From Nitratireductor thuwali (GTDB lineage Bacteria > Pseudomonadota > Alphaproteobacteria > Rhizobiales > Rhizobiaceae), in the NCBI RefSeq assembly GCF_036621415.1, contig NZ_CP030941.1, positions 434,001 to 498,000 of the forward strand: a stretch of DNA of 64,000 nucleotides. Direction: 5' to 3'. A program made the position numbers and the translations under genes. Positions 27,702 to 49,049 of the stretch are shown here, piece after piece (position 1 is the first letter of the stretch; each line of letters opens with the position of its first letter). The notes under the pieces are model-generated. The model was not told the origin of the DNA, made no database searches, and saw only the letters and a list, made by a program, of their open reading frames with translations.

Positions 27702-29276
27702 ATGACCGAATTCAGCACGCCGAACGAAACCGCGCCGGAGCCGGGCCGCACCCGCCGCGGCGGGCGCACGGGAAAGCGGAATGGCGCTTCCGGCTTCTCC
27801 CAGCCGGCTTTCCAGCAGATCAGATCGCCCTTCCCCTGCACCCCGATCGTTTCCGATGATGAGCTGGAATCCATTCACCTCGCCTCGCTGCGCGTGCTTT
27901 CGGAGATCGGCCTGGAGGTGCTCCACGATGAAGCGCGTGCGATCATGAAGGAGCACGGCGCGGACGTGCGGCCGGACACCCATCGCGTCCATTTCGACGC
28001 CGAGCTGATCACCGAGCTGATCGCCCATTGCCCGTCCGAATACACGCTCCACGCCCGCAACCCCGCCCACAACCTGCACATGGGCGGCAGCAGCATGATC
28101 TTTTCGCAGATCGGCTCGGCGCCCAATTGCTCCGACACGGACCGGGGCCGCCGGCCCGGGAACCAGGCGGACTTCCGGAATTTCATCAAGCTCGCCCAAA
28201 TGCATAACATCATCCACTGCATCGGCGGCTATCCGGTCGAGCCGATCGACGTGCATCCTTCGGTCCGCCATCTGGAGTGCCTGCGCGATATCGTGACGCT
28301 GACGGACAAGGTCTTTCACGTCTATTCGCTGGGCAAGGAGCGCAACCAGGACGGCATCGAGATCGCGCGCATTGCGCGCGGCCTCAGCCGCGAGCAGTTG
28401 CAGGACCAGCCTTCCTGCATGACCGTCATCAACACCAATTCGCCGCTCAAGCTGGATGTTCCGATGATGGAAGGCATCATCCAGATGTCCTCCATGGGGC
28501 AGGCCGTCATCATCACACCCTTCACCCTGGCCGGCGCCATGGCCCCCGTCACCATCGCCGGCGCGGTCGTGCAGCAGAACGCCGAGGCGCTGGCGGGGCT
28601 TGCCTTCAGCCAGATGGTCAGGAAAGGCGCGCCCGCCGCCTATGGCGGCTTCACCTCCAATGTCGACATGCGCTCCGGTGCCCCGGCCTTCGGCACGCCG
28701 GAATACATGAAGGCGCAATTATTGGGCGGCCAGCTCGCCCGCCGCTACGACATACCCTATCGCAGCTCCAATGCCTGCGCGGCAAACACGGTGGACGCCC
28801 AGGCCGCCTATGAAAGCGTGTTCTCGCTGTGGGGCTGCGTCCAGTCCGGAACGAACTTCGTCAAGCATGCCGCCGGCTGGCTGGAGGGCGGGCTGTGCTG
28901 CTCCTACGAAAAGATGATGCTCGACATCGACCTGTTGCAGATGGTGGCCGAGTTCCTCACCCCGCTCGACCTTTCGCCGGACGCGCTGGCGGTCGATGCG
29001 ATCCGCGACGTCGGCCCCGGCGGCCACTTCTTCGGCTCGCCGCACACCCAGGCCCGCTACAAGACCGCCTTCTACGCCCCCATCATCTCCGATTGGCGCA
29101 ATTACGAAAGCTGGGCGCAGGCCGGCGCGCCGACAGCCATCGAGCACGCCAACCGGCTGTGGAAAGAGCGCCTCGCCATCTATGAGGAGCCGCCCATGGA
29201 CCCGGCGATCCGCGAGGAACTTGGCGATTTCGTCGCCCGGCGCATCCGCGAAGGCGGCGCGCCGACGGATTTTTGA
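27702..29276 (+). CDS. MttB-superfamily (trimethylamine/glycine betaine methyltransferase-like) protein, non-pyrrolysine
   Basis: 524 residues of the MttB superfamily: a TIM barrel with stretches such as LASLRVLSEIGLEVLHDEA, YTLHARNPAHNLHMGG, TPFTLAGAMAPVTIAGA, KHAAGWLEGGLCCSYEKMM and DVGPGGHFFGSPHTQ. These proteins move a methyl group from a quaternary amine to a corrinoid protein. There is no in-frame amber codon, so it is the MtgB-like, non-pyrrolysine type; glycine or proline betaine are likely substrates. Residues 16-27 (GRTRRGGRTGKR) form a basic Arg/Gly tail. It is followed by a dimethylglycine dehydrogenase-like gene, which fits demethylation of glycine betaine. A start at 27690 is also in frame, but AGGAGG spacing favours 27702. 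Confidence 0.88.
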   Translation: MTEFSTPNETAPEPGRTRRGGRTGKRNGASGFSQPAFQQIRSPFPCTPIVSDDELESIHLASLRVLSEIGLEVLHDEARAIMKEHGADVRPDTHRVHFDAELITELIAHCPSEYTLHARNPAHNLHMGGSSMIFSQIGSAPNCSDTDRGRRPGNQADFRNFIKLAQMHNIIHCIGGYPVEPIDVHPSVRHLECLRDIVTLTDKVFHVYSLGKERNQDGIEIARIARGLSREQLQDQPSCMTVINTNSPLKLDVPMMEGIIQMSSMGQAVIITPFTLAGAMAPVTIAGAVVQQNAEALAGLAFSQMVRKGAPAAYGGFTSNVDMRSGAPAFGTPEYMKAQLLGGQLARRYDIPYRSSNACAANTVDAQAAYESVFSLWGCVQSGTNFVKHAAGWLEGGLCCSYEKMMLDIDLLQMVAEFLTPLDLSPDALAVDAIRDVGPGGHFFGSPHTQARYKTAFYAPIISDWRNYESWAQAGAPTAIEHANRLWKERLAIYEEPPMDPAIREELGDFVARRIREGGAPTDF

Positions 29277-29295
29277 GATGATGCGGCACGGTCGA

Positions 29296-29428
29296 CCCCC
29301 ACTCCGATCCGCTTCGCGGACCACCTCTCCCCCGCTCGACGGGGGAGAGGAAGAGCCGGCCGCAACCTCAGGCACCCTTCCTCTCCCCCCAGCGGGGGGA
29401 GAGGTGGCCCGCAGGGACGGAGTGGGGG
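29296..29428. repeat. Compound palindromic element with 11-bp terminal inverted repeats (family D)
   Basis: The element starts CCCCCACTCCG (29296-29306) and ends CGGAGTGGGGG (29418-29428), a perfect 11-bp inverted pair. Inside are two near-identical hairpins: CCTCTCCCCC/GGGGGAGAGG (29324-29350) and CCTCTCCCCCC/GGGGGGAGAGG (29380-29404). It lies between the mttB-family gene and a DUF559 gene and overlaps the latter's possible start. Similar CCTCTCCCC-type repeats are frequent in Rhizobiales genomes. Confidence 0.8.
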
Positions 29429-29871
29429 AAGACGCCGCTGACACGCGAAGCCGCCGGAAAGCGGGCGTCACCAAACGCGCTCGTCAGCTCCGCCAGACCG
29501 ATAATGAAGCGGAAGCCCTGCTCTGGCTGGAGTTGAAGCGGCGCAGGTTGGGCGGTTTCAAATTTACGCGCCAGTTCCCCATCGGCCCCTTCTTCGCTGA
29601 CTTCGCTTGCCGGGAACGATGGCTCGTCGTCGAGGTCGACGGCAGTCAACATATCGAAAGTGCACATGACCGCAGGCGCGATGAGTTCATGCGTTCCCAC
29701 GGCTACTCCGTGCTGCGCTTTGGGAATGTCGACGTTCTGCAGCAGCGAAGCACGGTCTGCGAAACAATCCTTGCAGCCCTGGAGGGCCGCATTGCCGAGG
29801 ACGTCAGCGCTCCCGACCTGCGCTTTATACACGCCCCAACATCAATTTCAGGTACGGACATAAGCAAATGA
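29422..29871 (+). CDS. DUF559 (Vsr/restriction-endonuclease-fold-like) protein
   Basis: About 149 residues from a GTG at 29422. The DUF559 core is clear: TDNEAEALLWLELKRRRLGG, FTRQFPIGPFFADFACRE, LVVEVDGSQHI, DRRRDEFMRSHGYSVLRF and NVDVLQQ. The D..EVDGSQH arrangement matches a PD-(D/E)XK nuclease fold related to very-short-patch repair endonucleases. The frame stays open back to an ATG at 29278, but that part is merely translation of the palindromic element, so I prefer the later start. Its stop overlaps the start of the next gene by 4 bp. It separates two genes of one pathway, which suggests insertion of the repeat plus gene into an operon. Confidence 0.7.
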   Translation: MGEDAADTRSRRKAGVTKRARQLRQTDNEAEALLWLELKRRRLGGFKFTRQFPIGPFFADFACRERWLVVEVDGSQHIESAHDRRRDEFMRSHGYSVLRFGNVDVLQQRSTVCETILAALEGRIAEDVSAPDLRFIHAPTSISGTDISK

Positions 29872-32453: not shown

Positions 32454-32464
32454 CGTAGGGCAGA

Positions 32465-33253
32465 TCAATCCGCCAGCGCCAGCACGCGCCGCAGGACGCG
32501 TATATCGTTGGGCGCGGTATATCTCGAGGTGATGTAGGGCAGACCCTTGCGCCGGGCCGTCCAGCCGACGGCGACAAGCTCTGCCGCATAGGGCTCGAAA
32601 CGCTGAATGAGGGCCCAGCTCCGGCAATCGACGGCGCACAGATCCGCCCTGCCCTCCGCCACCGCCCGCGCCGAAGCCCGATGCGAACCCGTCGCGACGG
32701 TCTCGGCGAACAGGTCGGCATCGCTGCCGATGTCCTGCAAGAGCGCGAAATAGCCCGACATCGAAACCGGCTCGTTGTAGGCCAACCGCAGGCCTTGCAT
32801 CCGGTCCAGCGGCAATACGGCACCCCCATCCGGGGGAGCGGCGACGCTGGTGCCCTCGCCCCGCCGCATCAGGACGGCGCTGGAATAGCAGGCGCCGGCG
32901 CCGCCCTCGCAGGACGAATAGTCGGGTTGGCCCACCAGTTGCACATGCTCATGCAGGCCCGCATTCATCGGGCCCCAGCAGGTCTGCGCCAAAAGCAGAT
33001 GCGGGTGATGCCACAATGCCTGCAGGTCCAGTCCGTCGGGCGGCAGGTCCGCCGGATCGGCGGCGATGACGGTCCCGGCCTCGTCGCGGATGCCGCCCGG
33101 CACCGGCGGCAGAGCGGCATTGTTGCGGGCAAGCCGCTCCGGAGCCTCGACACCGCAAGACCGCAGCGCCTTGGCGAGCTGGCTCCACAGCGCATCCGTG
33201 TCGGCCCGGATTTCGGGCCAGTCATACATCGGCAGCGCGGCGACCTGGCTCAT
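32465..33253 (-). CDS. PhnD-like periplasmic-binding-fold protein lacking a signal peptide
   Basis: 262 residues. Sequence blocks VAALPMYDWPE at the start, LLLAQTCWGPM, GACYSSAVLMRR, LAYNEPVSMSGYFALLQD and GRADLCAVDC match the phosphate/phosphite/phosphonate binding family (PhnD type). There is no hydrophobic signal sequence or lipobox at the N-terminus and no permease or ATPase next to it, so it may act in the cytoplasm or be a relict. The ATG at 33253 is used; upstream the frame continues only from a TTG. It converges on the dehydrogenase gene 11 bp away. Ligand unknown. Confidence 0.7.
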   Translation of the reverse strand: MSQVAALPMYDWPEIRADTDALWSQLAKALRSCGVEAPERLARNNAALPPVPGGIRDEAGTVIAADPADLPPDGLDLQALWHHPHLLLAQTCWGPMNAGLHEHVQLVGQPDYSSCEGGAGACYSSAVLMRRGEGTSVAAPPDGGAVLPLDRMQGLRLAYNEPVSMSGYFALLQDIGSDADLFAETVATGSHRASARAVAEGRADLCAVDCRSWALIQRFEPYAAELVAVGWTARRKGLPYITSRYTAPNDIRVLRRVLALAD

Positions 33254-33319
33254 GGCCGAATGTGTACGCAAACGGGCGCAAGGTTCAAGCTTTTAGAAAG
33301 CCCCTTTTCACGGACTGTC

Positions 33320-35371: not shown

Positions 35372-35382
35372 CGGGCTAGAAT

Positions 35383-35539: not shown

Positions 35540-36559
35540 ATGCAGAACCCAATCGATGCGCTGATTGCGGAAAAGGGCGTGCTTCTCGCCGACGGCGCGA
35601 CCGGCACCAACCTCTTCGCCATGGGGCTGCAGTCCGGCGAGGCGCCGGAGCTTTGGAACGAGGAAGCACCGGAAAAGATCGAGGCACTGCATCAGGGCTT
35701 CATCGACGCGGGCGCCGATATCATCCTGACCAATTCCTTTGGCGGAACCCGCCACAGGCTCAAGCTGCACGACGCCCAGGACCGCGTCTTCGAGCTCAAC
35801 AAGAAGGCTGCCGAGATCGCCTGCCGCGTGGCCGCCAAGGCCGGCCGCCGCGTCGTCGTCGCCGGTTCCGTCGGCCCCACCGGCGAACTGCTGGTGCCGT
35901 TGGGCGCGCTCACCTACGAGGCCGCCGTCGAGGCCTTCGTGGAACAGATCGAGGGCCTCAAGGCCGGCGGCGCGCAAGTCGCGTGGATCGAGACCATGTC
36001 GGCGCCCGACGAAATCAAGGCCGCGGCCGAAGCCGCCATCAAGGTGGGCCTGCCCTATACCTATACCGGCTCGTTCGACACCGCCGGCCGCACCATGATG
36101 GGGCTTGCCCCCAAGAACATCCACGATGTCGGCGAAACGATGCCGCAGAAGCCGGTCGCCGTGGGCGCCAATTGCGGCGTCGGCGCGCCCGACATCCTTG
36201 CCGCCCTGCTGGACATGTCCGAAGCCCGCCCCGAGGCCACCATCGTCGTCAAGGGCAATTGTGGCATCCCGGAGTTTCGCGGCACCGAGATTCATTATTC
36301 GGGGACGCCCGAGCTCATGAGCGAGTATGTGCGGCTTGCCGTCGACGGCGGCGCAAGGATCATCGGCGGCTGCTGCGGCACCTCGTTCGAGCACCTGGCC
36401 GCCATGCGCAGGGCGCTCGATGAGCACCGGAAGAACGGCAGGCCCGACATCGCCGCCATCGAAGCCCGCGTCGGCCCGATGCGCAACAAGGGCGCGGCCC
36501 AGAGCGGCGCCGACAGCGCGCCCGGCGGCCGCCGCGAAAGGCGCCGTGCACGGGGCTAG
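35540..36559 (+). CDS. bmt: Homocysteine S-methyltransferase (betaine-homocysteine type / split methionine synthase module)
   Basis: 339 residues of the zinc-dependent homocysteine S-methyltransferase family. The start is LLADGATGTNLFAMGL, and the zinc ligands are the cysteine in GANCGVG and the pair in GGCCGTS. In MetH this is only the first module; here it is a separate protein, with the B12 and pterin modules encoded at 40666 and 45993. It could therefore be part of a split methionine synthase, or a betaine-homocysteine methyltransferase. The C-terminus ends in a basic tail (PGGRRERRRARG). The ATG at 35540 fits homologues; a 22-bp palindrome lies upstream. Confidence 0.88.
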   Translation: MQNPIDALIAEKGVLLADGATGTNLFAMGLQSGEAPELWNEEAPEKIEALHQGFIDAGADIILTNSFGGTRHRLKLHDAQDRVFELNKKAAEIACRVAAKAGRRVVVAGSVGPTGELLVPLGALTYEAAVEAFVEQIEGLKAGGAQVAWIETMSAPDEIKAAAEAAIKVGLPYTYTGSFDTAGRTMMGLAPKNIHDVGETMPQKPVAVGANCGVGAPDILAALLDMSEARPEATIVVKGNCGIPEFRGTEIHYSGTPELMSEYVRLAVDGGARIIGGCCGTSFEHLAAMRRALDEHRKNGRPDIAAIEARVGPMRNKGAAQSGADSAPGGRRERRRARG

Positions 36560-37342: not shown

Positions 37343-38941
37343 TCAGGTGAAAGCGTCGGGCATTGCCTCCTTGCGCTTTGCCACGAAGTCCTTCAGCGCC
37401 TCGTCGATGCCTTCGTCGAGCGGCGGCGGCTGATAGGCCTCCAGCCAGCTTCGCGCCAGTTGATTGGCACGCTGGTTCGCCGTCTTTTCACCTTCCGCCG
37501 ACCATTGTTCATAGGAATTGTTGTCGGCAATCGATGAACGGTAGAAGGCCGTCTGGAAGTTCGCCTGCGTATGCGCGCAGCCGAGATAATGGCTGCCCGG
37601 GCCCACTTCGCGGATGGCGTCCATCGCCTGGCCGTTCTCCGAAAGATCCAGCGGCTCGCACAGGCGCTGCTGCATGCCGAGCTGGTCGATGTCCATCATG
37701 AATTTCTCGTAGGACGACACCAGCCCGCCCTCCAGCCAGCCGGCCGCATGCAGCACGAAATTCGTTCCCGCCAGCACCGTCGAATTGAGCGTGTTGGCGC
37801 TTTCATAGGCCGCCTGCGCATCGGCAACCTTGGAAGCCGTCAGCGAGCCGCCCGTACGGAACGGCAGGCCGAGCCGCCGCGCGAGCTGTGCCGCCCCGTA
37901 GGAGACGAGCGAAGGTTCCGGCGTTCCGAAGGTGGGCGCGCCCGACTGCATGGAAATGGACGAAGCGAAGGTGCCGAAGAGCACCGGCGCACCGGGCCGC
38001 ACAAGCTGGGTGAAGGCGGCGCCCGCCAGCACTTCGGCCAGCACCTGCGTGAGCGTGCCGGCCACCGTCACCGGGCTCATGGCCCCTGCCAGGATGAAAG
38101 GCGTGATGATGCAGGCCTGGTTGGCCCTCGCATACACCTTGGCCGCGCCCAGCATCGTCTCGTCGAAGACCATGGGCGAGTTGGCGTTGATGAGATTGAT
38201 GACGACGGTGTTGTTGTCGACGAATTCCTCGCCGAAGAGGATCCTCGCCATCGCCACCGTGTCCTCGGCACGGTCCGGCGCCGTCACCGACCCCATGAAG
38301 GGTTTGTCGGACAGGCGCATATGGGCATAAACCATGTCCAGATGGCGCTTGTTGACGGGCACGTCCACTGGCTCGCAAACGGTGCCGCCCGAATGGTGGA
38401 TCGACGGCGCCATATAGGCCAGCTTCACGAAATTGCGGAAGTCCTCGATCGTGGCATAGCGGCGGGTGCCATCCAGGTCGCGCACGAAAGGCGGGCCGTA
38501 TACGGGCGCGAAAACCGTGGCATTGCCGCCGATCTCGACCGAACGCTCCGGGTTGCGGGCGTGCTGCGTGAAGACGGGGGGCGCAGTCTTCAGAAGCTCT
38601 CGGCACAGGCCCTTGGGGAAATGCACCCGCTCGCCCTGAACGTCGGCGCCTGCAGCCTTCCAGAGCGCCAACGCCTCGGCGTCGTCGCGGAACTCAATGC
38701 CGATCTCCTCGAGCACCGTATCGGCGTTGGCCTCGATAAGCGCCAGGCCTTCCTCGTCCAGGATCCCGTAGGGCGACAGGCTGCGGCGGATATAGGCGAG
38801 CTGGGTTCCCGGCCCGCCGCCCGTGCGCGCCGCGCGCCGCGCGGCGGCGCCGCCGCGCTCCCCTCGCCCGCCCCTGCCGCGGCGCCCTTCGGCTGCGACG
38901 TCGGGGGTGGCTGAAAACTCGTCCGGCGAATTCTGGTTCAT
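37343..38941 (-). CDS. Second MttB-superfamily methyltransferase with Arg/Gly-rich N-terminus
   Basis: 532 residues, MttB superfamily, about as far from the protein at 27702 as different subfamilies are. Typical blocks are ANADTVLEEIGIEFRDD, FTQHARNPERSVEIGG, TPFILAGAMSPVTVAGT, LHAAGWLEGGLVSSYEKF and REVGPGSHYLGCAHTQ. No in-frame stop codon interrupts it, so it is a non-pyrrolysine form. Residues 20-39 hold at least eight arginines interspersed with glycine (RRGRGGRGERGG then RRAAR), a disordered basic extension ahead of the barrel. The start at 38941 is the better of two ATGs. It lies in the corrinoid cluster, opposite strand to bmt. Substrate unknown, probably a quaternary amine. Confidence 0.87.
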   Translation of the reverse strand: MNQNSPDEFSATPDVAAEGRRGRGGRGERGGAAARRAARTGGGPGTQLAYIRRSLSPYGILDEEGLALIEANADTVLEEIGIEFRDDAEALALWKAAGADVQGERVHFPKGLCRELLKTAPPVFTQHARNPERSVEIGGNATVFAPVYGPPFVRDLDGTRRYATIEDFRNFVKLAYMAPSIHHSGGTVCEPVDVPVNKRHLDMVYAHMRLSDKPFMGSVTAPDRAEDTVAMARILFGEEFVDNNTVVINLINANSPMVFDETMLGAAKVYARANQACIITPFILAGAMSPVTVAGTLTQVLAEVLAGAAFTQLVRPGAPVLFGTFASSISMQSGAPTFGTPEPSLVSYGAAQLARRLGLPFRTGGSLTASKVADAQAAYESANTLNSTVLAGTNFVLHAAGWLEGGLVSSYEKFMMDIDQLGMQQRLCEPLDLSENGQAMDAIREVGPGSHYLGCAHTQANFQTAFYRSSIADNNSYEQWSAEGEKTANQRANQLARSWLEAYQPPPLDEGIDEALKDFVAKRKEAMPDAFT

Positions 38942-40665: not shown

Positions 40666-41364
40666 ATGTCCGACGACGAAATCATCCTTTCGGACCTTTC
40701 TGACGAAGAACTCGTGCAGCAGATGCACGACGACCTTTATGACGGTCTGAAAGAAGAGATCGAGGAAGGCACGCGGATTCTTCTGGAGCGCGGCTGGACA
40801 CCCTACGACCTGCTCACCAAGGCCCTGGTGGAAGGCATGCGCATCGTCGGCGAGGATTTCCGCGACGGCATCCTGTTCGTGCCGGAGGTGCTGTTGTCTG
40901 CCAACGCCATGAAAGCGGGAATGACCATCCTGCGCCCTCTTCTGGTGGAAACCGGCGCGCCCAAGCAGGGCAAGATGGTCATCGGCACCGTCAAGGGCGA
41001 TATCCACGACATCGGCAAGAACCTCGTCGGCATGATGATGGAGGGCGCCGGTTTCGACGTGATCGACCTCGGCATCAACAACCCGGTGGAGAACTACCTC
41101 GCGGCCATCGAGGAGCACCAGCCCGACATCGTCGGCATGTCGGCGCTTTTGACCACGACCATGCCCTATATGAAGGTCGTGATAGACACGCTTAAGGAAA
41201 GGGGCATCCGCGACGACCTTATCGTGCTGGTGGGCGGCGCGCCCCTCAACGAGGAATTCGGCAAGGCGGTCGGCGCGGACGCCTATTGCCGCGATGCGGC
41301 CGTCGCCGTCGAAACGGCGAAGGCCTTCATGAAGCGGAAGCACAATGTCGGCGCTTCAGCGTAG
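40666..41364 (+). CDS. Stand-alone corrinoid (B12-binding) methyl-carrier protein
   Basis: 232 residues. Residues about 20-100 form the four-helix cap domain. From 104 on there is the Rossmann-like B12 domain with DIHDIG at 112-117 (His114 as the lower cobalt ligand), the SALL motif at 159-162 and LVGGAPLNEEF. It shuttles methyl groups between methyltransferases, like MtaC/MttC or the cobalamin module of MetH. The N-terminal 35 residues hold 14 Asp/Glu and one Lys. AGGAG precedes the ATG at 40666. It is the hub of the cluster: donors (mttB genes, pterin methyltransferase) and acceptor (bmt) flank it. Confidence 0.92.
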   Translation: MSDDEIILSDLSDEELVQQMHDDLYDGLKEEIEEGTRILLERGWTPYDLLTKALVEGMRIVGEDFRDGILFVPEVLLSANAMKAGMTILRPLLVETGAPKQGKMVIGTVKGDIHDIGKNLVGMMMEGAGFDVIDLGINNPVENYLAAIEEHQPDIVGMSALLTTTMPYMKVVIDTLKERGIRDDLIVLVGGAPLNEEFGKAVGADAYCRDAAVAVETAKAFMKRKHNVGASA

Positions 41365-41689: not shown

Positions 41690-41723
41690 GATTGTCCCTC
41701 CTGGAACGGCCTGAGAGTTTGAA

Positions 41724-42374
41724 TTGGCACAGCTACAACGCGGCAATGCGGAAAAGGTTCTGGTGATCGCCTGCGGGATGATCGCCCGCGAGGTGCTGGC
41801 CGTGCGCCAGCGCCTGGGCTTTGACCATATCGAGCTGACCTGTCTGCCCGCGCAATATCACTACCGCCCGGACAGGATCGCGCCGGAGATCGACAAGGCC
41901 GTCGAGAAAGCCAGGTCCGAAGGCTATCGGCATATCTTCATCGGCTATGCCGACTGCGGAACCGGCGGCGCCCTTGACCGCGTGTGCGAAAAACATGGCG
42001 TGGAGCGTATAGCCGGACCGCACTGCTTCGCCTTTTATCAGGGGCTCGAGGCTTTCGAGAAGGTGATGGAGGATGATATGATGTCCTTCTACATGACGGA
42101 CTTCCTGTGCCGCCATTTCGACGCGTTCTTCATGCGCCCCCTGGCCCTCGACCGCCACCCGGAACTCATCCAGGACTTCTTCGGCAACTATGAGAAAGTG
42201 ATCTATCTGGCCCAGACGGAAGATCCGGTGCTCGAGAAGGTGGCGCGCGCGGCCGCCCGCCTGCTCGGGCTTGAATATGAGCGGCGCTTCACCGGCTATG
42301 GCGACCTTTCGCAGGCCATGGCGCAGGCAGCCGGCGCGTCCGTTCAGGACCATAAAAAGGCTTCAATCGGCTGA
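41724..42374 (+). CDS. DUF1638 protein of the corrinoid methyl-transfer cluster
   Basis: 216 residues starting from a TTG (41724); no ATG fits better because conserved sequence begins at residue 10 (EKVLVIACGMIAREVLAV). Conserved blocks include HIELTCLPAQYHYRPDRI, IFIGYADCGTGGALDRVC and AGPHCFAFYQG, with four conserved-looking cysteines (17, 39, 77, 88 approximately) that could bind a metal or cofactor. This is DUF1638. Proteins of this family often occur with corrinoid methyltransferases and the activase in other genomes, from memory. A role in corrinoid loading, reactivation or methyl transfer is plausible; the activity is unknown. Confidence 0.8.
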   Translation: MAQLQRGNAEKVLVIACGMIAREVLAVRQRLGFDHIELTCLPAQYHYRPDRIAPEIDKAVEKARSEGYRHIFIGYADCGTGGALDRVCEKHGVERIAGPHCFAFYQGLEAFEKVMEDDMMSFYMTDFLCRHFDAFFMRPLALDRHPELIQDFFGNYEKVIYLAQTEDPVLEKVARAAARLLGLEYERRFTGYGDLSQAMAQAAGASVQDHKKASIG

Positions 42375-42402
42375 TTGGTTCACGCTTGGCTTGGAGATGT
42401 CC

Positions 42403-42984: not shown

Positions 42985-43076
42985 CGGCCGTGGAACCCTC
43001 GGCATGGCTGTCATGAAGGCTTAACCGCTCGAGGGCATGATGCATTCAACACAACGAGCATGAAGAAAGACATCCG

Positions 43077-43721
43077 GTGAAAGCGGAGGGAACGGGTTCG
43101 GGCATGGCCATGCGCGCGCCGACGGCTGACGCGCCGCGCAGGCTGTCGCGCGTATTCGAGGAGCTTGCCGGCAACGCCCACGGCTCGGTGACGGTGGAAC
43201 AGCTCCGTCAGGCGCTGGGTGACCGCAGCTTCGCAACGCTTCTCGTCTTTTTCTCTTGCCTTAACATGCTGCCCCTGCCGCCGGGCAGCACGCTGGTCCT
43301 CGGCATTCCCCTGATTCTGCTGTCGATCCAGATGGTCCTGGGCAGCCGAACGGTCTGGCTGCCCCGGTTCGTCTTGAGAAAATCGCTGACCGCCGACAGT
43401 TTCCGCCACATGAGCGGCCGGCTGGTGCCGCGAATCAAATGGGTGGAGAAGCTCATCCGCCCCCGCTATTGGCCTTTCGCCCGTGACCACGCCGACCGCA
43501 TCATCGGCCTGATCGCGCTGATACTGTCGATAGCGGTCACCCTGCCGATCCCGCTCGGCAACTGGTTTCCCGCCTTTTCCTGCGCCCTTGTAGGCCTTGC
43601 TCTTTCCGAGCGCGACGGTGTGCTTCTGGGCGTCGCCGTCGTTAGCGGCACCCTTTCGCTGCTTGTCATCGCGGTCGTTATCGGGGCCGCGAGCATGGTG
43701 GCGGGCACGGTCCTCGGCTGA
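43077..43721 (+). CDS. exoD: ExoD-family inner-membrane protein
   Basis: 214 residues from a GTG at 43077 (an ATG at 43104 behind GGAGGG is an alternative start). It begins with a soluble helical part (LSRVFEELAGNAHGSVTVEQ) and then has several membrane helices: FATLLVFFSCLNMLPLPPGS, GIPLILLSIQMVLG, IIGLIALILSIAVTLPIPLG and GVAVVSGTLSLLVIAVVIG. This is the ExoD family, first linked to exopolysaccharide synthesis and alkaline tolerance in Sinorhizobium. The link to its methyl-transfer neighbours is positional only. Confidence 0.82.
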   Translation: MKAEGTGSGMAMRAPTADAPRRLSRVFEELAGNAHGSVTVEQLRQALGDRSFATLLVFFSCLNMLPLPPGSTLVLGIPLILLSIQMVLGSRTVWLPRFVLRKSLTADSFRHMSGRLVPRIKWVEKLIRPRYWPFARDHADRIIGLIALILSIAVTLPIPLGNWFPAFSCALVGLALSERDGVLLGVAVVSGTLSLLVIAVVIGAASMVAGTVLG

Positions 43722-43836
43722 ACCCGCCGGTTGACGGCATCTCCCGCGTCGCATTTGAAAGAACCAGCGTCGTCGCGCAGCAAGCGGGCGTGCGCGCAAC
43801 GGCGCAATCCTCAATCCCAATGGAGACATATCGGAC

Positions 43837-44139
43837 ATGGCCGATCTGATCGTAGTTTACTGGCGCGACATCCCCGCCCAGGTCATCGTCAAGAAGGGCC
43901 GCAAGACGGCCCGGCGCGAGCTTTCCCTGCGCTTTACCGAAGCGATCGACATGTGCGCGATGCGCGTCGGCGCCCGCGATACCGATTCCTATCTCGCCGA
44001 ATGGCGGCGCGCCGACCCGATTGCTGTCAGCGACGACCTCGAAACGGAGGCCGAAAAGGCCAGATCCGACCTCGAAGAAACCTATACGGACGAGCGCCTG
44101 AAGGCGCTTGTAAAGGCAGGCGGACATGACCGCGAATGA
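43837..44139 (+). CDS. Virul_Fac-family small protein upstream of metV/metF
   Basis: 100 residues, soluble. The sequence begins ADLIVVYWRDIPAQVIVKKG, then FTEAIDMCAMRVGARDTDSY and LAEWRRADPI, matching the small 'virulence factor' (Virul_Fac) family, whose name gives no real function. GGAGACATATCGGAC precedes the ATG. It overlaps the following MetV-like gene by 14 bp, so it is translated with metV and metF. Consistent linkage to one-carbon genes would argue for a role in methylene-THF reductase or corrinoid chemistry. Confidence 0.75.
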   Translation: MADLIVVYWRDIPAQVIVKKGRKTARRELSLRFTEAIDMCAMRVGARDTDSYLAEWRRADPIAVSDDLETEAEKARSDLEETYTDERLKALVKAGGHDRE

Positions 44140-44731
44140 AAAGCCGACGCGCCTGCGTCAGCGCGTGACGCAGGCAACCATCGTGCGCAAGGCGCGGGAG
44201 CTTATCGCCTACAAGCCGGCGGATGTTTCGCCGCAGCGGCGCGTGCAGCGCCGTTACACGATGCGGCGGTGGTCGGTGCGCCATTCGCGCGGCCTGGAAT
44301 GGTTCTACGCCCATTTCGCCGACGCTTTCCTGGCGCTGCATCCCCTGTGGCGCGCCATCGGATACCGGCGGGCCGAGGCTCCGGTGAAGTTCGTCGAGAA
44401 ACGGGTCAAGGGCCTCTTGTTCGACTGCCGCATGTGCGGCCAGTGCATCCTTTCCTCCACCGGCATGTCCTGCCCCATGAACTGCCCGAAGCAATTGCGC
44501 AACGGCCCCTGCGGCGGCGTGCGCGCCAACGGCAATTGCGAAGTCGAGCCCGACATGCCTTGCGTGTGGGTGAAGGCATGGGAAGGCTCGCAGCGGATGC
44601 GCGGCAAGGAAAATATTCTTGCGGTGCAGGAACCGGTCGACCAGTCCCTGCGCGAGACGTCCTCGTGGCTGCGCGTCACCGCGCTCGCCGCCGCCGAGCG
44701 CGACCGGAAAACGGAGGACGCCGCCGGATGA
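44126..44731 (+). CDS. MetV-like Cys-rich protein (methylene-THF reductase C-terminal-domain family)
   Basis: 201 residues. The N-terminal 55 residues are very basic (RQRVTQATIVRKARE, RRVQRRYTMRRWSVRHSRG). The C-terminal half has eight cysteines: C101, C104, C107, C116, C120, C129, C138 and C146 within CRMCGQC, GMSCPMNC and GPCGG. This matches the MTHFR_C/MetV family, which partners MetF in acetogens and carries iron-sulfur clusters. It overlaps both neighbours, with its stop inside the metF start (ATGA). It probably forms a MetVF complex for methylene-THF/methyl-THF interconversion with an electron donor other than NADH. That function is inferred from relatives. Confidence 0.82.
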   Translation: MTANEKPTRLRQRVTQATIVRKARELIAYKPADVSPQRRVQRRYTMRRWSVRHSRGLEWFYAHFADAFLALHPLWRAIGYRRAEAPVKFVEKRVKGLLFDCRMCGQCILSSTGMSCPMNCPKQLRNGPCGGVRANGNCEVEPDMPCVWVKAWEGSQRMRGKENILAVQEPVDQSLRETSSWLRVTALAAAERDRKTEDAAG

Positions 44732-45843
44732 TCCACCGACCTCCCCAGATCGATGAAAACCCGCATGGCGTGGACCTGCCGCTCGAGCCCCTGCCAGGCC
44801 ATTCCTCGCGCGGCAGACTGGAGCGCGTGCTGCGCCGCGGCGAGTTCGCCGTCACCGCCGAATTGAACCCGCCCGACAGCGCCAATGCGCAGGACGTCTA
44901 TGAGCGCGCCGCCGTCTTCGACGGCTGGGTGGACGGCATCAACGCCGTCGACGCCTCCGGCGCCAACTGCCACATGTCGTCGCTCGGCATCTGCGCGCTG
45001 CTTACCCGCATGGGCTATGCCACGATCATGCAGATCGCCTGCCGCGACCGCAACCGCATCGCCATTCAGGGCGACGTGCTGGGCGCGGCGGCCATGGGCG
45101 TGGCCAACATATTGTGTCTGACCGGCGATGGCGTGCAGGCCGGCGACCAGCCGGGCGCCAAGCCGGTTTTCGACCTCGACAGCATGTCGCTCCTTGAGAC
45201 GATACGCATCATGCGCGACGAGGAACGGTTTCTGTCCGGCCGCAAACTTTCGACGCCGCCCGCCGTTTTCATGGGCGCGGCCATCAATCCCTTCGCCCCG
45301 CCTTATGATTTCCGCCCGCTGCGCCTCGCCAAGAAGATCGCCGCCGGCGCGCAGTTCGTGCAGAGCCAATATTGCTTCGACGTGCCGATGCTGCAGGAAT
45401 ATATGAAGCGGGCGCGCGACCTCGGGCTGATCGAAAAATGCTACATACTGGTCGGCGTCGGCCCCCTCGCCTCGGCCAGGACCGCCCGCTGGATTCGCGC
45501 CAACGTGCCCGGCGTCCATATCCCCGACGACGTGGTGCGCCGCCTGGAAGGCGCGCAGAACCAGAAGGAAGAAGGCAAGCGCCTGTGCATCGACATCATC
45601 AACGAGGTGAAGGAGATCGAAGGCGTGTCGGGCATCCATGTCATGGCATACAGGCAGGAGGAGTATGTCGCCGAAATCGTCCACGAATCGGGCGTTCTGA
45701 AGGGCCGCCGCCCCTGGAAACGCGAACCCGGTCCCGACGACGCCATGGTGGCCGACCGCCTGGATCACCTTCTGGAAACGCCAAGCCAGCGGCCGGTGGA
45801 CATGGTGAAGGATGCCGCGGGGGAGAGTCCATTAGGGCAATAG
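44728..45843 (+). CDS. metF: 5,10-methylenetetrahydrofolate reductase-family protein MetF
   Basis: 371 residues, longer than the ~300-residue E. coli MetF. TIM-barrel blocks are present: FAVTAELNPPDSANAQ (with the Glu of the catalytic TAE motif), MQIACRDRNRIAIQGD, NILCLTGDGVQAGD, AAINPF and AGAQFVQSQYCFD. FAD binds in the ILCLTGD region. It overlaps the MetV-like gene by 4 bp. It interconverts methylene- and methyl-THF; in this context it may supply methyl-THF for methionine or oxidise methyl-THF made from betaine methyl groups. Unlike the corrinoid-contacting proteins it has no Arg/Gly tail. Confidence 0.88.
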   Translation: MIHRPPQIDENPHGVDLPLEPLPGHSSRGRLERVLRRGEFAVTAELNPPDSANAQDVYERAAVFDGWVDGINAVDASGANCHMSSLGICALLTRMGYATIMQIACRDRNRIAIQGDVLGAAAMGVANILCLTGDGVQAGDQPGAKPVFDLDSMSLLETIRIMRDEERFLSGRKLSTPPAVFMGAAINPFAPPYDFRPLRLAKKIAAGAQFVQSQYCFDVPMLQEYMKRARDLGLIEKCYILVGVGPLASARTARWIRANVPGVHIPDDVVRRLEGAQNQKEEGKRLCIDIINEVKEIEGVSGIHVMAYRQEEYVAEIVHESGVLKGRRPWKREPGPDDAMVADRLDHLLETPSQRPVDMVKDAAGESPLGQ

Positions 45844-45931
45844 GGGAATAGGACGGTAAGGCAGCGGGAGAATTACGAGGCTTCATCAACCATTCCGGCC
45901 CCCACTGCCGTCCTGCCTTACATCCCTGCCC
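45835..45931. repeat. Family C imperfect palindromic repeat, copy 2
   Basis: Begins GGGCAATAGGGGAATAGGA inside the metF stop and ends TCCTGCCTTACATCCCTGCCC. The inner arms GTAAGGCAG and CTGCCTTAC pair perfectly. It shares GGGAGAATT and GGCTTCAT with copy 1 at 24246-24317. It sits just before the palindromic operator of the next gene. Confidence 0.7.
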
Positions 45932-45954
45932 CCGCTTGAAACCTGTCAAATAAC

Positions 45955-45976
45955 GATATAAACAAGTCTTTATATC
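45955..45976. promoter_or_regulatory. 22-bp palindromic operator, SahR-like, upstream of pterin methyltransferase gene
   Basis: Arms GATATAAACA and TCTTTATATC around AG; only one pair is mismatched. It is the same motif as at 35473-35494, in both cases the only strongly AT-rich patch nearby. It ends 16 bp before the ATG at 45993, overlapping where transcription would begin, so repression is likely. It ties this gene to bmt in one regulon. Confidence 0.72.
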
Positions 45977-45992
45977 TTCTGGAGGATTGTGA

Positions 45993-46946
45993 ATGACCCG
46001 CACCATCGTCGCCTCGGCGACAAAGGAAGTTATCATCGGCTTCGATCAGCCGTTCTGCGTCATCGGCGAGCGCATCAACCCGACCGGCCGCAAGAAACTC
46101 GCCGCCGAGATGGTCGAGGGCAATTTCGAGACCGTGATCAACGATGCGCTTGCCCAGGTAGCCGCCGGGGCCACCATGCTGGACGTCAATGCCGGCGTGA
46201 CCGCCGTCGATCCCAACGCGACCGAGCCGGCGCTGCTGGTTCAGACGCTGGAGATCGTCCAGGGCCTCGTCGACGTGCCCCTGTCGATCGACTCCTCGGT
46301 CTCGGCCGCCATCGAGGCAGCGCTGAAGGTGGCCAAGGGCCGGCCGCTGGTCAATTCGGTGACCGGCGAGGAAGAAAAGCTCGAAGCGATCCTGCCGCTC
46401 ATCAAGAAGTACGACGTGCCCGTCGTCGCCATCTCGAACGATGAGACAGGGATCTCGGAAGATCCCGACGTGCGCTTCGAAGTGGCCAGGAAGATAGTGC
46501 GGCGGGCCGCCGATTTCGGCATCCCGGCGCACGACATCGTGGTCGATCCGCTGGTCATGCCCATCGGCGCCATGGGCACGGCGGGCAAGCAGGTCTTCGC
46601 GCTCCTGCGCCGGCTGCGGGAGGAACTGAAGGTCAACACGACCTGCGGCCTGTCCAACATATCCTTCGGCCTGCCGCACCGCCACGGCATCAATGCCGGC
46701 TTCATTCCCATGGTCATCGGCGCCGGCATGACCAGCGCCATCATGAACCCCTGCCGCCCGCAGGAAATGGAGGCGGTGCGCGCCGCCAACGTTCTCAACG
46801 GCACCGACGCGAACTGCCACACCTGGATCATGACCTACCGCGACCATCAGCCGGCGGCCGGCGGCACAGCGCAGGCAGCGCACGTCGATTCCTCGTCCGG
46901 CGGACGCCGCCGCGGCGGGCGCGAGGCGCGGCGGGCGCGGGCCTGA
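45993..46946 (+). CDS. Methyltetrahydrofolate:corrinoid methyltransferase (pterin-binding, AcsE/MtgA-like)
   Basis: 317 residues with a pterin-binding TIM barrel: FCVIGERINPTGRKKLAAEM at the start, ATMLDVNAGV, VPLSIDSSVSAAIEAAL, PLVNSVTGEEEKL and VVAISNDETG. The later TTCGLSNISFGLPHRHGIN is typical of AcsE/MtgA and of the pterin module of MetH. It moves methyl groups between THF and the corrinoid protein. A basic Arg/Gly tail (SGGRRRGGREARRARA) follows the barrel. CTGGAGGATTGTG precedes the ATG and a 22-bp palindrome lies just upstream. It could be the third piece of a split methionine synthase or the betaine pathway's exit to THF; both could be true. Confidence 0.9.
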   Translation: MTRTIVASATKEVIIGFDQPFCVIGERINPTGRKKLAAEMVEGNFETVINDALAQVAAGATMLDVNAGVTAVDPNATEPALLVQTLEIVQGLVDVPLSIDSSVSAAIEAALKVAKGRPLVNSVTGEEEKLEAILPLIKKYDVPVVAISNDETGISEDPDVRFEVARKIVRRAADFGIPAHDIVVDPLVMPIGAMGTAGKQVFALLRRLREELKVNTTCGLSNISFGLPHRHGINAGFIPMVIGAGMTSAIMNPCRPQEMEAVRAANVLNGTDANCHTWIMTYRDHQPAAGGTAQAAHVDSSSGGRRRGGREARRARA

Positions 46947-47000
46947 GACGATCTTGAAGGACAGCACGCTACATACCCCATCGCCACAAGGCTGCAGGTC

Positions 47001-49049
47001 ATGACCGACCACCTCGTCCTCTTCATGCCGTCCGGCAAGCGCGGGCGCTTCGAGAAGGGGACGACCGTGCTCGACGCTGCGCGGAAGCTGGGCGTCTATG
47101 TCGAGAGCGTGTGCGGCGGTCGCGCGACCTGCGGGCGCTGCCAGATCGAGGTGCAGGAAGGCCACTTCGCCAAGCACAAGATATCCTCGTCCAAGGAGAG
47201 CATTTCCGGCGTCGGACCCAACGAGGCGCGCTATCTGGAAAAGCGGTCCCTGCCGGCCGGGCGCCGCCTTTCCTGCGCCGCGACCATCGAAGGCGATCTT
47301 GTCGTCGACGTCCCGCAGGACGCGGTGGTCAACGCGCAGGTGGTGCGCAAGGACGCCGACGACCGCCAGATCGCGCGCCGCCCCGCCGTTGGGCTTTGCT
47401 ATGTCGAGGTGGAAGAGCCCGACATGCACAAGCCGCTGGGCGATCTCGACCGGGTAAAGGCCGCGCTTCAGAAGGATTGGGGCTATGAGCGGCTGGAGGC
47501 CGATTATCATCTGCTGCCGCAGGCGCAGAAGATCCTGCGCGAGGGGCAATGGGCCGTCACCGCCGCCGTCCACCAGGACGAGGACGACGAGACCGCGCGC
47601 ATCATCGCACTATGGCCGGGACTGAAGAACGAGGCCTATGGCATCGCCTGCGATATCGGCTCGACCACCATCGCCATGCATCTGGTCTCGCTTCTGTCGG
47701 GCCGTGTCGCTGCTTCCGCCGGAACGTCGAACCCGCAGATCCGTTTCGGCGAAGATCTGATGAGCCGCGTTTCCTATGTGATGATGAATCCGGAAGGCCG
47801 CGACGCCATGACCAAGGCGGTGCGGCTGGAAATATCCAAGCTCGTTCAGCAGGTCGTGGACGAGGCCGGCTGCGCCCGCGAGGATGTGCTGGACGCCGTC
47901 TTTGTCGCCAACCCCATCATGCACCACCTGTTCCTGGGCATCGACCCGACGGAGCTCGGCGGCGCGCCCTTTGCGCTGGCCGTATCGGGCGCTGTGAAAT
48001 TGAGGGCCGACGATCTGCGCCTGAAGCTCAATCCGGGCGCACGCACCTATCTGTTGCCCTGCATCGCCGGCCATGTCGGCGCCGATGCCGCCGCCGTGAC
48101 GCTGTCGGAGGGACCGCATCGGCAGGACGAGATGATGCTGATCGTCGATGTCGGCACCAATGCCGAAATCGTGCTCGGCAACCGGAGCCGCGTCGTCGCC
48201 GCCTCCTCGCCCACCGGCCCCGCTTTCGAAGGCGCCGAAATCTCCGGGGGCCAGCGTGCCGCCCCCGGCGCCATCGAGCGCGTGCGCATCGACCGCGACA
48301 CGCTTGAGCCGCGCTACCGCGTGATCGGCGCCGATATCTGGTCGGACGAGCCCGGTTTCCTTGAGGCGATCGGCCCGACCGGAGTGACCGGCATTTGCGG
48401 CTCCGGCATCATCGAAGTGATCGCCGAGATGTACCTGTCGGGCATCATCTCCGAAGACGGCGTCATCGACGGCGCGCTTGCCGCGAAAAGCCGCCGTATC
48501 GTCGGCGATGGGCGCACCTTCTCCTATGTCCTGGTCGAGTCCGAGCCGCGCCTGACGATCACGCAGAACGACGTGCGCGCCATCCAGCTCGCCAAGTCGG
48601 CGCTCTATGCCGGGACGAAGCTTCTCATGGAAAAACAGGGCGCTGAGACGGTTGATTCCATCCGCTTCGCAGGCGCCTTCGGCTCGTTCATCGACCCGAC
48701 CTACGCGATGGTCCTCGGCCTCATTCCCGACTGCGAACTGGAAAAGGTCTCAGCCGTGGGCAACGCCGCCGGCACCGGCGCGCGCATGGCGCTGCTCAAC
48801 CGCGACCACCGCCGCGAGATCGAGGAGACGGTGCGCCGGATCGAGAAGATCGAAACCGCCCTGGAGCCGAAGTTCCAGGAGCATTTCGTCTACGCCATGG
48901 CGCTGCCCAACAAGGTCGATCCGTTCCCCAAGCTCGCGGCCCAGATCCAGCTTCCACCGCGCAAGGTGCTCGGCGGCGACAGTGGCGATCCCAGCCGCCC
49001 CCGCCGCCGCTCCCGCGAAGAGCGTGACGCGAGGCGGCAGCGCGGATAG
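47001..49049 (+). CDS. Corrinoid reactivation protein (RACo/RamA-type, 2Fe-2S ferredoxin plus ASKHA ATPase)
   Basis: 682 residues. The N-terminal ferredoxin domain has Cys38-x5-Cys44-x2-Cys47 in VCGGRATCGRC and a fourth cysteine at 92 (LSCAA). A linker is followed by a RACo middle/ASKHA domain (DUF4445): YGIACDIGSTTIAMHLVS, VADAVFVANPIMHHLFLG-like region, LIVDVGTNAEIVLGN, SGGQRAAPGAIERV and GICGSGIIEVIAEMYLSG. It uses ATP and an electron to reduce cob(II)alamin formed by accidental oxidation. The last 18 residues are basic (SRPRRRSREERDARRQRG). It is the final gene of the plus-strand corrinoid run. Confidence 0.9.
   Translation: MTDHLVLFMPSGKRGRFEKGTTVLDAARKLGVYVESVCGGRATCGRCQIEVQEGHFAKHKISSSKESISGVGPNEARYLEKRSLPAGRRLSCAATIEGDLVVDVPQDAVVNAQVVRKDADDRQIARRPAVGLCYVEVEEPDMHKPLGDLDRVKAALQKDWGYERLEADYHLLPQAQKILREGQWAVTAAVHQDEDDETARIIALWPGLKNEAYGIACDIGSTTIAMHLVSLLSGRVAASAGTSNPQIRFGEDLMSRVSYVMMNPEGRDAMTKAVRLEISKLVQQVVDEAGCAREDVLDAVFVANPIMHHLFLGIDPTELGGAPFALAVSGAVKLRADDLRLKLNPGARTYLLPCIAGHVGADAAAVTLSEGPHRQDEMMLIVDVGTNAEIVLGNRSRVVAASSPTGPAFEGAEISGGQRAAPGAIERVRIDRDTLEPRYRVIGADIWSDEPGFLEAIGPTGVTGICGSGIIEVIAEMYLSGIISEDGVIDGALAAKSRRIVGDGRTFSYVLVESEPRLTITQNDVRAIQLAKSALYAGTKLLMEKQGAETVDSIRFAGAFGSFIDPTYAMVLGLIPDCELEKVSAVGNAAGTGARMALLNRDHRREIEETVRRIEKIETALEPKFQEHFVYAMALPNKVDPFPKLAAQIQLPPRKVLGGDSGDPSRPRRRSREERDARRQRG

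What the first reader, a model, noticed from the sequence alone, without database searches (positions are those of the whole stretch)
27702..49049. Arg/Gly-rich basic tails on five enzymes that should contact one acidic corrinoid protein
Seen in sequence: the MttB-like protein at 27702 has GRTRRGGRTGKR near its N-terminus; the MttB-like protein at 37343 has about eight Arg in residues 20-39; bmt ends GGRRERRRARG; the pterin methyltransferase ends GGRRRGGREARRARA; the activase ends SRPRRRSREERDARRQRG. The corrinoid protein at 40666 begins with 14 Asp/Glu and one Lys in 35 residues. MetF, which should not touch the corrinoid, has no such tail. Inference: the tails are an electrostatic docking code that gathers donors, acceptor and activase around the shared methyl carrier, a kind of metabolon or condensate. 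I know of no description of this.
Basis: partly seen in the sequence, partly recalled or inferred. Interest (0 to 1): 0.8.

Follow-up and report, generated by a model that had tools for sequence, protein, structure and literature searches.

The report
Arginine tails on methyl-carrier partner enzymes
Enzymes that pass methyl groups through one very acidic vitamin-B12 protein carry conserved arginine-rich tails, probably a charge-based tether that stands in for the covalent links of ordinary methionine synthase, though binding has not been tested.

Summary
All six charge features are present. Of 1525 genes called from 1.66 of this genome's 4.75 Mb, four end in a hydrophobic-free stretch with at least 7 Arg. 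Three are this cluster's activase, Bmt and pterin methyltransferase; MttB2 ranks first among N-termini. The corrinoid protein has the most acidic first 35 residues (-13).

Relatives keep the tails. Class-wide activase 46/48, pterin methyltransferase 42/42, Bmt 29/29, MttB 13/15. They do not follow GC content and are more constrained than the adjacent linker. A divergent corrinoid system (0/7 loci) and two-part MetH (0/12) lack them.

The cluster is the published split methionine synthase/glycine-betaine methyltransferase MtgBCDE (PMC12478193, PMC5764234). Ten paper searches found no description of the tails. Best reading: electrostatic tethers to the acidic carrier, replacing MetH's covalent linkers (about 0.5). 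Against: binding and condensation are untested (structure prediction was off), tail charge does not covary with carrier acidity, tail-less carriers are acidic too, and some neighbours are also basic.

The parts
27702..29276 (+). MttB-like methyltransferase 1 (MtgB family, no in-frame TAG); Arg/Gly tail GRTRRGGRTGKR at residues 15-26 (27744-27779)
   Evidence: PF06253 672 bits; no stops inside; translation
27744..27779 (+). N-terminal Arg/Gly/Lys tail of MttB1
35540..36559 (+). bmt / mtgE: homocysteine S-methyltransferase module, with C-terminal Arg tail
   Evidence: NF005718 544 bits over cut-off 338; only PF02574 hit in the genome
36524..36556 (+). C-terminal tail of Bmt, GGRRERRRARG
   Evidence: 29/29 class-wide; 240 of the 240 listed Bmt homologues (best 120 of 8000 scored, best 120) have >=4 Arg per 12
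37343..38941 (-). MttB-like methyltransferase 2 (MtgB family)
   Evidence: PF06253 792 bits; closest PDB chain 4YYC carries the same kind of N-terminal tail in its sequence
38822..38887 (-). N-terminal Arg/Gly tail of MttB2 (residues 19-40)
   Evidence: rank 1 of 1525 N-termini
40666..41364 (+). MtgC: corrinoid (B12-binding) methyl carrier
   Evidence: PF02607 + PF02310; one of two PF02310 hits in the genome
40666..40770 (+). Acidic N-terminal segment of MtgC (14 Asp/Glu, 1 Lys, net -13)
   Evidence: alignment A1
41724..42374 (+). DUF1638 protein (no tail); start codon not settled
   Evidence: PF07796; homologue needed for methionine synthesis in P. inhibens (PMC5764234, passages)
44728..45843 (+). 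MetF (metF2-like), no Arg tail at its C-terminus
   Evidence: PF02219 (on a longer frame); called gene start
45993..46946 (+). Ptr / mtgD: methyltetrahydrofolate:corrinoid methyltransferase with C-terminal Arg tail
   Evidence: PRK07535 398 bits over cut-off 259
46899..46943 (+). C-terminal tail of Ptr, GGRRRGGREARRARA
   Evidence: 42/42 class-wide; pN/pS 0.21 in tail versus 0.61 in linker
47001..49049 (+). RACo/RamA-like corrinoid activase (ASKHA) with C-terminal Arg tail
   Evidence: PF14574, PF17651, PF17650, PF00111
48993..49046 (+). C-terminal tail of RACo, SRPRRRSREERDARRQRG
   Evidence: 46/48 class-wide; solved RACo 3ZYY matches only query residues 1-637 of 682

Best explanation
The cluster is the split methionine synthase / glycine-betaine methyltransferase (MtgBCDE plus RamA-like activase and DUF1638). 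MetH joins its homocysteine, folate, B12 and reactivation modules covalently; here they are separate chains. Each chain that must meet the B12 protein (MtgB, MtgD, MtgE, activase) carries a linker and an Arg-rich tail, usually with 4 to 9 Arg. The B12 protein MtgC carries its negative charge concentrated in its first 35 residues. I propose that the tails are non-covalent electrostatic tethers. They hold each acidic enzyme core near the acidic carrier loosely and exchangeably, so that donors, acceptor and activase take turns at the cofactor. Shown: the split system's anatomy, tail rarity, tail conservation, purifying selection, Arg preference, absence from control systems, and the charge complement. 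Inferred: that the tails are flexible, that they bind MtgC, that the N-terminal segment is the site, and that this raises methyl-transfer rates.
For: Rarity and charge complement in one genome: top-ranked Arg tails and the most acidic N-terminus of 1525 proteins.

Conservation at >=5 Arg per 12 residues, distinct proteins from the fetched loci of the class sample: RACo 46/48, Ptr 42/42, Bmt 29/29, MttB N-terminus 13/15; genome background 46/1525 (C) and 43/1525 (N). All 360 listed homologues of three searches (120 Ptr, 240 Bmt; the best 120 of about 8000 each, the window's own Bmt among them) have >=4 Arg per 12 in the last 45 residues.

Not a GC artefact: r = 0.08 over 120 tails; Arg/(Arg+Lys) is 0.90-0.95 in tails versus 0.58-0.70 in bodies. 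Ptr and Bmt tails persist in a genome whose loci are 32-33% GC.

Selection, pN/pS tail versus linker versus body: RACo 0.34/0.57/0.23, Ptr 0.21/0.61/0.14.

Specificity at the same threshold: RACo 0/7 and Ptr 0/7 in a divergent corrinoid system, homocysteine subunit 0/12 and B12 subunit 0/12 in two-part MetH. Among 322 open frames (>=100 aa) of the fetched neighbourhoods with a >=6-Arg hydrophobic-free C-tail, 200 match a cluster protein, and only RACo (126), Ptr (43) or Bmt (31).

Enzyme cores are negative (medians -14, -7, -14, -16) and MtgC is -18, so without tails like charges would repel. In the tail clade MtgC's charge sits at residues 1-35 (-13), with -1 and -4.5 elsewhere; in tail-less carriers it is spread (-8, -2, -13).
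Against: Tail charge does not covary with carrier acidity across 84 loci (r -0.05, -0.16), though both vary little. Tail-less corrinoid proteins have first-35 charges of -5 to -14, overlapping the tail clade's -10 to -15; one tailed system, Paracoccus methylovorus, has -9. Whole-protein charge is similar in both groups.

Neighbours not expected to touch the carrier are also basic: the MTHFR C-terminal-domain protein (median net +13; N-terminus >=5 Arg per 12 in 12/27 near relatives); MetF's N-terminal Arg cluster (39/44 near relatives); and a MetF homologue beside the tail-less system in L269 that ends RRRPKRARSAVKAG (5 Arg per 12). One tail-less-system Ptr (L269) ends RTKQRETKRAAR, 4 Arg.

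MttB tails are looser: only 8 of 42 near relatives reach >=5 Arg per 12, although 43 of 43 reach >=5 per 20. Purified P. inhibens Bmt works alone with betaine and DMSP (PMC12366255, passages). Arg-rich tails would also bind RNA or other polyanions in a cell.
Confidence: 0.5

Rival explanations
1. The tails bind another polyanion (RNA, nucleoid, polyphosphate, ribosome or acidic membrane lipids), which serves as the scaffold that co-localises the pathway; MtgC is not the direct partner.
For: Arg blocks bind nucleic acids non-specifically (general knowledge). The tail sequence is degenerate and mainly its composition is kept. The only other >=7-Arg tail in the sample is on an unidentified 743-aa protein; I suspect an RNA helicase from memory of such tails, not tested.
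Against: The one protein every enzyme must reach, MtgC, has the opposite charge and no tail (0/20), so a polyanion scaffold would repel it. Tails are missing from RACo and Ptr homologues that sit beside another corrinoid protein.
Confidence: 0.22
2. Arg tails plus the acidic MtgC segment drive multivalent condensation: a membraneless methyl-transfer compartment rather than one-to-one docking.
For: Oligomeric enzymes with several tails each would be multivalent: the Methanosarcina MttB is a hexamer (PMC9842639, passages). Arg-rich chains phase-separate with anionic partners more readily than Lys-rich ones (PMC9705477, abstract start in the listing), and the tails strongly prefer Arg.
Against: One short acidic segment per MtgC and about 4-9 Arg per tail is low valence. 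The oligomeric state of the tailed enzymes is unknown. Nothing here tests condensation.
Confidence: 0.12
3. The tails act separately on each protein (solubility of acidic cores, stability, degradation control or oligomer contacts), and their shared presence reflects shared regulation or gene history, not one partner.
For: The enzymes' cores are net negative and a tail partly balances them. Solved MttB uses its N-terminal region for oligomer contacts (PMC9842639, passages).
Against: Four enzyme families (RACo, Ptr, Bmt, MttB), on either end of the chain, carry the same rare feature, while a comparably acidic neighbour (DUF1638, median -8) does not.
Confidence: 0.12
4. Compositional accident of a GC-rich genome.
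For: Many of the unassigned open frames with Arg-rich ends in these loci look like non-coding frames, so GC-rich DNA does produce such ends.
Against: No GC dependence (r=0.08), a low-GC genome keeps Arg, purifying selection on the tail, 1 of 76,250 shuffled proteins.
Confidence: 0.02

Closest known systems
Split methionine synthase / glycine-betaine methyltransferase MtgBCDE (Ruegeria pomeroyi, Phaeobacter inhibens; PMC12478193, PMC5764234)
   Same: Same modules: MttB/MtgB, MtgC, pterin-binding MtgD, homocysteine module MtgE (= Bmt), RamA-like activase, DUF1638, metF2
   Different: No difference of the system was found. The tails and acidic start are not mentioned in the main text of PMC12478193 for the six terms searched, and 'arginine-rich' does not occur in PMC5764234. 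I did not fetch the R. pomeroyi or P. inhibens proteins themselves
Multi-domain MetH and two-part MetH
   Same: Same chemistry; modules homologous to Bmt, Ptr and MtgC
   Different: Modules are covalently linked, or split once; in the two-part form neither subunit has an Arg tail (0/12 each)
Solved corrinoid methyltransferases and activases: MtgB (2QNE, 9YCE), MttB-MttC complex (7XCN), RACo (3ZYY, 4C1N), MeTr (1F6Y, 2E7F)
   Same: Same enzyme families and reactions
   Different: Their chains do not align to the tails and are too short to hold them: 3ZYY (631 aa) aligns to residues 1-637 of 682, 1F6Y (262 aa) to 23-283 of 317, 9YCE (477 aa) from residue 55. Exception: 4YYC, an MttB, includes a tail of this kind in its chain sequence
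MtaC N-terminal domain docking into MtaB (PMC9842639, passages)
   Same: A corrinoid protein's N-terminal extension provides docking
   Different: A folded domain in a groove, one partner; here a short acidic segment and, by inference, many partners
Acidic carrier hubs: acyl carrier protein with basic patches on partners, SSB C-terminal tail, CsoS2-Rubisco (recalled; CsoS2 papers seen only in a search listing)
   Same: One charged hub or carrier recognised by many partners through opposite charge
   Different: In ACP systems the basic patch is on the folded surface (recalled); here an Arg tail recurs on four enzyme families

Membership tests
Split methionine synthase / GBT methyltransferase MtgBCDE | Separate genes for homocysteine, pterin, B12 modules and MttB-family donor | tested here: met
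   PF02574, PF00809, PF02607/PF02310, PF06253 on separate ORFs
Split methionine synthase / GBT methyltransferase MtgBCDE | RamA-like activase, DUF1638 and a metF paralogue in the neighbourhood | tested here: met
   same order from mtgC to the activase gene in S. meliloti pSymB and Azoarcus, with extra genes between in S. meliloti
Split methionine synthase / GBT methyltransferase MtgBCDE | No full-length MetH in the genome, as in P. inhibens | tested here: met
   Only two PF02310 hits (mtgC and a 731-aa frame) and one PF02574 hit (bmt). Two Meth_synt_2 (core-MetE-like, 351 and 390 aa frames) hits exist
Split methionine synthase / GBT methyltransferase MtgBCDE | Mutants are methionine auxotrophs and fail on glycine betaine | not testable with these tools
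   Shown for mtgC and mtgD in R. pomeroyi by others (PMC12478193, Results part 1 of 2 read)
Glycine betaine-specific corrinoid protein MtgC, curated models NF047996 and NF047995 | Score over curated cut-off (370; 310) | tested here: not met
   211.8 and 178.2 bits
Trimethylamine--corrinoid methyltransferase with pyrrolysine (TIGR02369) | Score over cut-off 525 and in-frame TAG | tested here: not met
   301 and 278 bits, no stops inside
Corrinoid activation protein AcsV (NF040756) | Score over cut-off 800 | tested here: not met
   394 bits
Betaine--homocysteine S-methyltransferase, PRK07534-type (NF005718) | Score over cut-off 338 | tested here: met
   544 bits; PMC12478193's Discussion equates S. 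meliloti bhmt with mtgE
Acidic carrier with electrostatic docking of partners (ACP-like) | Carrier strongly acidic, partners carry a conserved basic element | tested here: met
Acidic carrier with electrostatic docking of partners (ACP-like) | Salt-sensitive binding through those elements | not testable with these tools
   No binding data; structure prediction switched off
Biomolecular condensate / metabolon | Co-localisation or phase separation of the members | not testable with these tools
   none

The most novel reading that the evidence does not exclude
Split methionine synthase is held together by a charge code. Arginine tails on four enzyme families (at either terminus) recognise the acidic N-terminus of one shared methyl carrier and functionally replace the covalent linkers of MetH. 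This lets one B12 protein serve many donors (several MttB paralogues), one acceptor and one activase, possibly as a condensate. Any enzyme bearing such a tail could then be predicted to be a client of the carrier.
Probability: 0.4. Interest if true: 0.8.

Novelty: new variant of a known kind. Interest (0 to 1): 0.62.

Why it matters
How separately encoded B12 methyltransferase modules find one carrier without MetH's linkers is, as far as I found, open: the sections of PMC12478193 that I read describe a core MtgC interacting with the other modules without saying what holds them together. A conserved, easily deleted element on the partner enzymes makes this directly testable in the system that links glycine-betaine use to methionine synthesis in marine and soil Alphaproteobacteria. 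If true, the tail is also a sequence marker for new clients of the carrier, and a compact transferable tether for multi-enzyme engineering.

Tried and rejected
GC or codon artefact: rejected. Tails as a general feature of the genome: rejected. A shared exact motif: not found. The tails share composition and short pieces such as RRGREARR, not one motif, and I made no formal motif test. Other tail-bearing families in the neighbourhood: none convincing. Of the 322 candidates, 122 in 81 clusters matched no cluster protein; I saw one example each of the 25 largest clusters. Nearly all look like non-coding frames, judged by eye; a 557-aa frame in L035 may be a real protein. That search covered C-termini only. 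Quantitative covariation of tail charge with MtgC acidity: none.

Four window proteins as members of curated families whose cut-offs they miss (MtgC NF047996, AcsV activase, pyrrolysine MttB for both MttB proteins): not filed there. Tail presence on SAR11-type stand-alone Bhmt: wanted as a control, not reached. MttB paralogues away from the fetched loci, and in genomes without MtgC: not sampled, because the letters could not be cut. Two RACo misses in the class sample: L019 has RRRGLRRRG followed by a further extension, and L227 has no tail in its frame. One near-relative miss, L044, ends in an unrelated sequence that looks like a frameshift; the cause was not tested.

Counting choices: sets were reduced to distinct proteins by a 50-residue segment near the C-terminus; ORFs running off a locus were dropped. 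Loci were fetched for the best RACo and Bmt matches of the class sample, not for all. The phylum sample shares genomes with the class sample (for example G022, G154, G252). The MetF rows used an ORF with a wrong, too early start, so I rely for MetF.

Full report
What is there. The window is bases 434001-498000 of contig C1 of a 4.75-Mb genome. Among the 80 loci returned, the nearest named relative of its activase is in Nitratireductor luteus (96% identical in the best tblastn segment). The region encodes two MttB-family proteins, a homocysteine S-methyltransferase (Bmt), a corrinoid protein, DUF1638, MetF, a methyltetrahydrofolate:corrinoid methyltransferase (Ptr) and a RACo/RamA-like activase. 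Two small ORFs lie just before MetF. By comparison with the annotated Sinorhizobium meliloti pSymB and Azoarcus clusters they match in order a 'virulence factor' family protein (43837-44139) and a 'methylenetetrahydrofolate reductase C-terminal domain' protein (44126-44731).

What system it is. This is the split methionine synthase described in Phaeobacter inhibens (PMC5764234; passages read), later shown in Ruegeria pomeroyi to be also the glycine-betaine methyltransferase MtgBCDE (PMC12478193; abstract, part 1 of 2 of the Results and the Discussion read). Bmt is their MtgE, Ptr is MtgD and the corrinoid protein is MtgC. The genome has no full-length MetH: only two PF02310 hits, of which the second is a 731-aa frame, and one PF02574 hit, which is bmt. 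Two core-MetE-like frames exist.

The observation. All tails and the acidic start are as stated. To ask whether they are unusual I called genes by script in 1.6 Mb of the same chromosome plus the window (1525 genes). Only 4 proteins have a hydrophobic-free C-terminal stretch with at least 7 Arg: RACo (9), Bmt (7), Ptr (7) and an unidentified 743-aa protein (7). For N-termini MttB2 ranks first with 8 Arg, and MttB1 is among five proteins with 5. In a simpler measure, at least 5 Arg in some 12 residues, 46 of 1525 C-termini and 43 of 1525 N-termini qualify. MtgC's first 35 residues have net charge -13, and no other protein of the 1525 reaches -10. The chance figures (8e-7; 1 of 76,250 shuffles) were computed after seeing the pattern.

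Conservation. The class sample searched 289 genomes; the counts are distinct proteins from the loci fetched around the best RACo and Bmt matches. With the 12-residue measure at >=5 Arg they give RACo 46/48, Ptr 42/42, Bmt 29/29, MttB1 2/2 and MttB2 11/13. The 80 nearest named records give RACo 45/46 distinct, Ptr 23/26 (26/26 at >=4), Bmt 9/9, but MttB2 only 8/42 (20/42 at >=4), because its Arg are spaced by Gly and Ala. With a 20-residue window 43/43 of those MttB2 reach at least 5 Arg; background for that measure is 33/1525. A phylum sample (398 genomes, 43 with a RACo match, sharing some genomes with the class sample) gives RACo 25/25 and Ptr 7/9, or 9/9 at >=4. One of the 43 lies outside the class (L298), with tails on both proteins. 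Azoarcus sp. KH32C, a betaproteobacterium, has 7 (Ptr) and 6 (RACo) Arg per 12; S. meliloti pSymB has 4 (MttB), 4 (Ptr) and 6 (RACo). Three protein searches each list the best 120 of about 8000 scored homologues. All 360 have at least 4 Arg in 12 of the last 45 residues, and 120, 112 and 118 of 120 have at least 5; these are close relatives, and the first list includes the window's own Bmt.

It is not base composition. Tail Arg count does not follow locus GC (r = 0.08, 120 tails), and Arg/(Arg+Lys) is 0.90-0.95 in tails against 0.58-0.70 in the bodies. A genome whose loci are 32-33% GC still ends Ptr in RQRARRRG and Bmt in RRTRRRR. In the near relatives (80 RACo, 78 Ptr) the tail is more constrained than the linker just before it: pN/pS 0.34 against 0.57 in RACo (body 0.23), 0.21 against 0.61 in Ptr (body 0.14). 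Single Arg positions use up to six codons.

Controls. Seven loci of sampled genomes hold a divergent corrinoid system (RACo about 30%, Ptr about 30%, corrinoid protein about 45% identical). At the same threshold RACo scores 0/7 and Ptr 0/7 (L265-L271). The nearest approach is the Ptr of L269, ending RTKQRETKRAAR (4 Arg). A MetF homologue in that same locus ends RRRPKRARSAVKAG and does reach 5, which is against a strict 'carrier contacts only' rule. In twelve genomes with two-part MetH the detached homocysteine subunit scores 0/12 and the B12-bearing subunit 0/12 (L273-L284). A RACo of 55% identity beside a fused 667-aa corrinoid protein (L272) ends in a Lys/Arg-mixed basic stretch, not an Arg block. 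In the cluster, DUF1638 C-termini qualify in 1/20, MetF C-termini in 1/16 and MtgC in 0/20 of the class sample. Solved relatives do not reach into the tails, whereas 4YYC, the closest MttB chain, has one in its sequence. A distant haloarchaeal cluster has no tails (36% RACo; L313).

Charge logic. Without their tails the enzymes are negative (median net charge RACo -14, Ptr -7, Bmt -14, MttB -16) and MtgC is -18, so the tail is the evident positive element each brings. In the tail clade MtgC's charge is concentrated in residues 1-35 (median -13, then -1 and -4.5; 30 sequences); in tail-less carriers it is spread (-8, -2, -13; 8 sequences). The tail clade's first 35 residues range from -10 to -15 (n=52), with -9 in Paracoccus methylovorus. 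Tail-less carriers range from -5 to -14 (n=8; -6 to -10, n=9, with other start choices). The difference is therefore one of averages and the ranges overlap.

Reading. I think the most likely role is non-covalent tethering: the split enzyme lacks MetH's linkers (PMC12478193 argues that it evolved separately from MetH), and Arg tails on its clients keep them close to one acidic carrier. That the tails bind MtgC is inference. Rivals are binding to RNA or another polyanion, condensation, or separate roles on each enzyme. Against the RNA-scaffold rival, the carrier itself has the wrong charge and no tail.

Results against the reading. There is no covariation of tail charge and carrier acidity over 84 loci. 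The MTHFR C-terminal-domain protein is basic (+13) and its N-terminus qualifies in 12/27 near relatives. MetF has a conserved Arg cluster near its N-terminus (39/44). Neither should meet MtgC. Purified P. inhibens Bmt acts in vitro without the co-factors tetrahydrofolate or cobalamin (PMC12366255; passages).

Print status. Ten searches of the paper library found no description of these tails in what their listings showed. PMC12478193's main text has none of 'arginine', 'tail', 'terminus', 'disordered', 'electrostatic', 'charged' at a word start; 'arginine-rich' does not occur in PMC5764234, nor 'arginine' in PMC12366255. Supplements and subscription papers were not seen.

Noticed in passing
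43837-44139; L315 9701-11983: A 100-aa ORF matches proteins annotated 'virulence factor' in the S. meliloti and Azoarcus clusters; in Terrarubrum flagellatum a 760-aa gene of that annotation begins like it and continues as the RACo activase, suggesting a role in corrinoid activation rather than virulence.
   Followed up: partly
L265-L271: Several sampled genomes of the class carry a divergent, tail-less corrinoid methyltransferase system with its own RACo, pterin enzyme and corrinoid protein.
   Followed up: partly
L269, MetF homologue of 278 aa: A MetF homologue beside the tail-less system ends in an Arg-rich stretch (RRRPKRARSAVKAG), an exception to the idea that only carrier contacts have tails.
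   Followed up: no
L313 7146-11852: A haloarchaeal plasmid (Halomicrococcus gelatinilyticus) has a corrinoid protein, RACo-like activase, DUF1638 and MtrH-like gene in a row, without Arg tails.
   Followed up: partly
L316, L317 (G000:C1:64645 and 1175869): The genome has two Meth_synt_2 (core-MetE-like) frames of 351 and 390 aa that may be extra methionine synthases.
   Followed up: no
28996-29871: The second half of this ORF resembles a DUF559-type nuclease-like protein (recalled, not searched), placed between MttB1 and the FAD/GCV_T dehydrogenase gene.
   Followed up: no
44126-44731: The MTHFR C-terminal-domain protein is strongly basic (median net +13 in relatives) and could be another charge partner in the cluster.
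   Followed up: no
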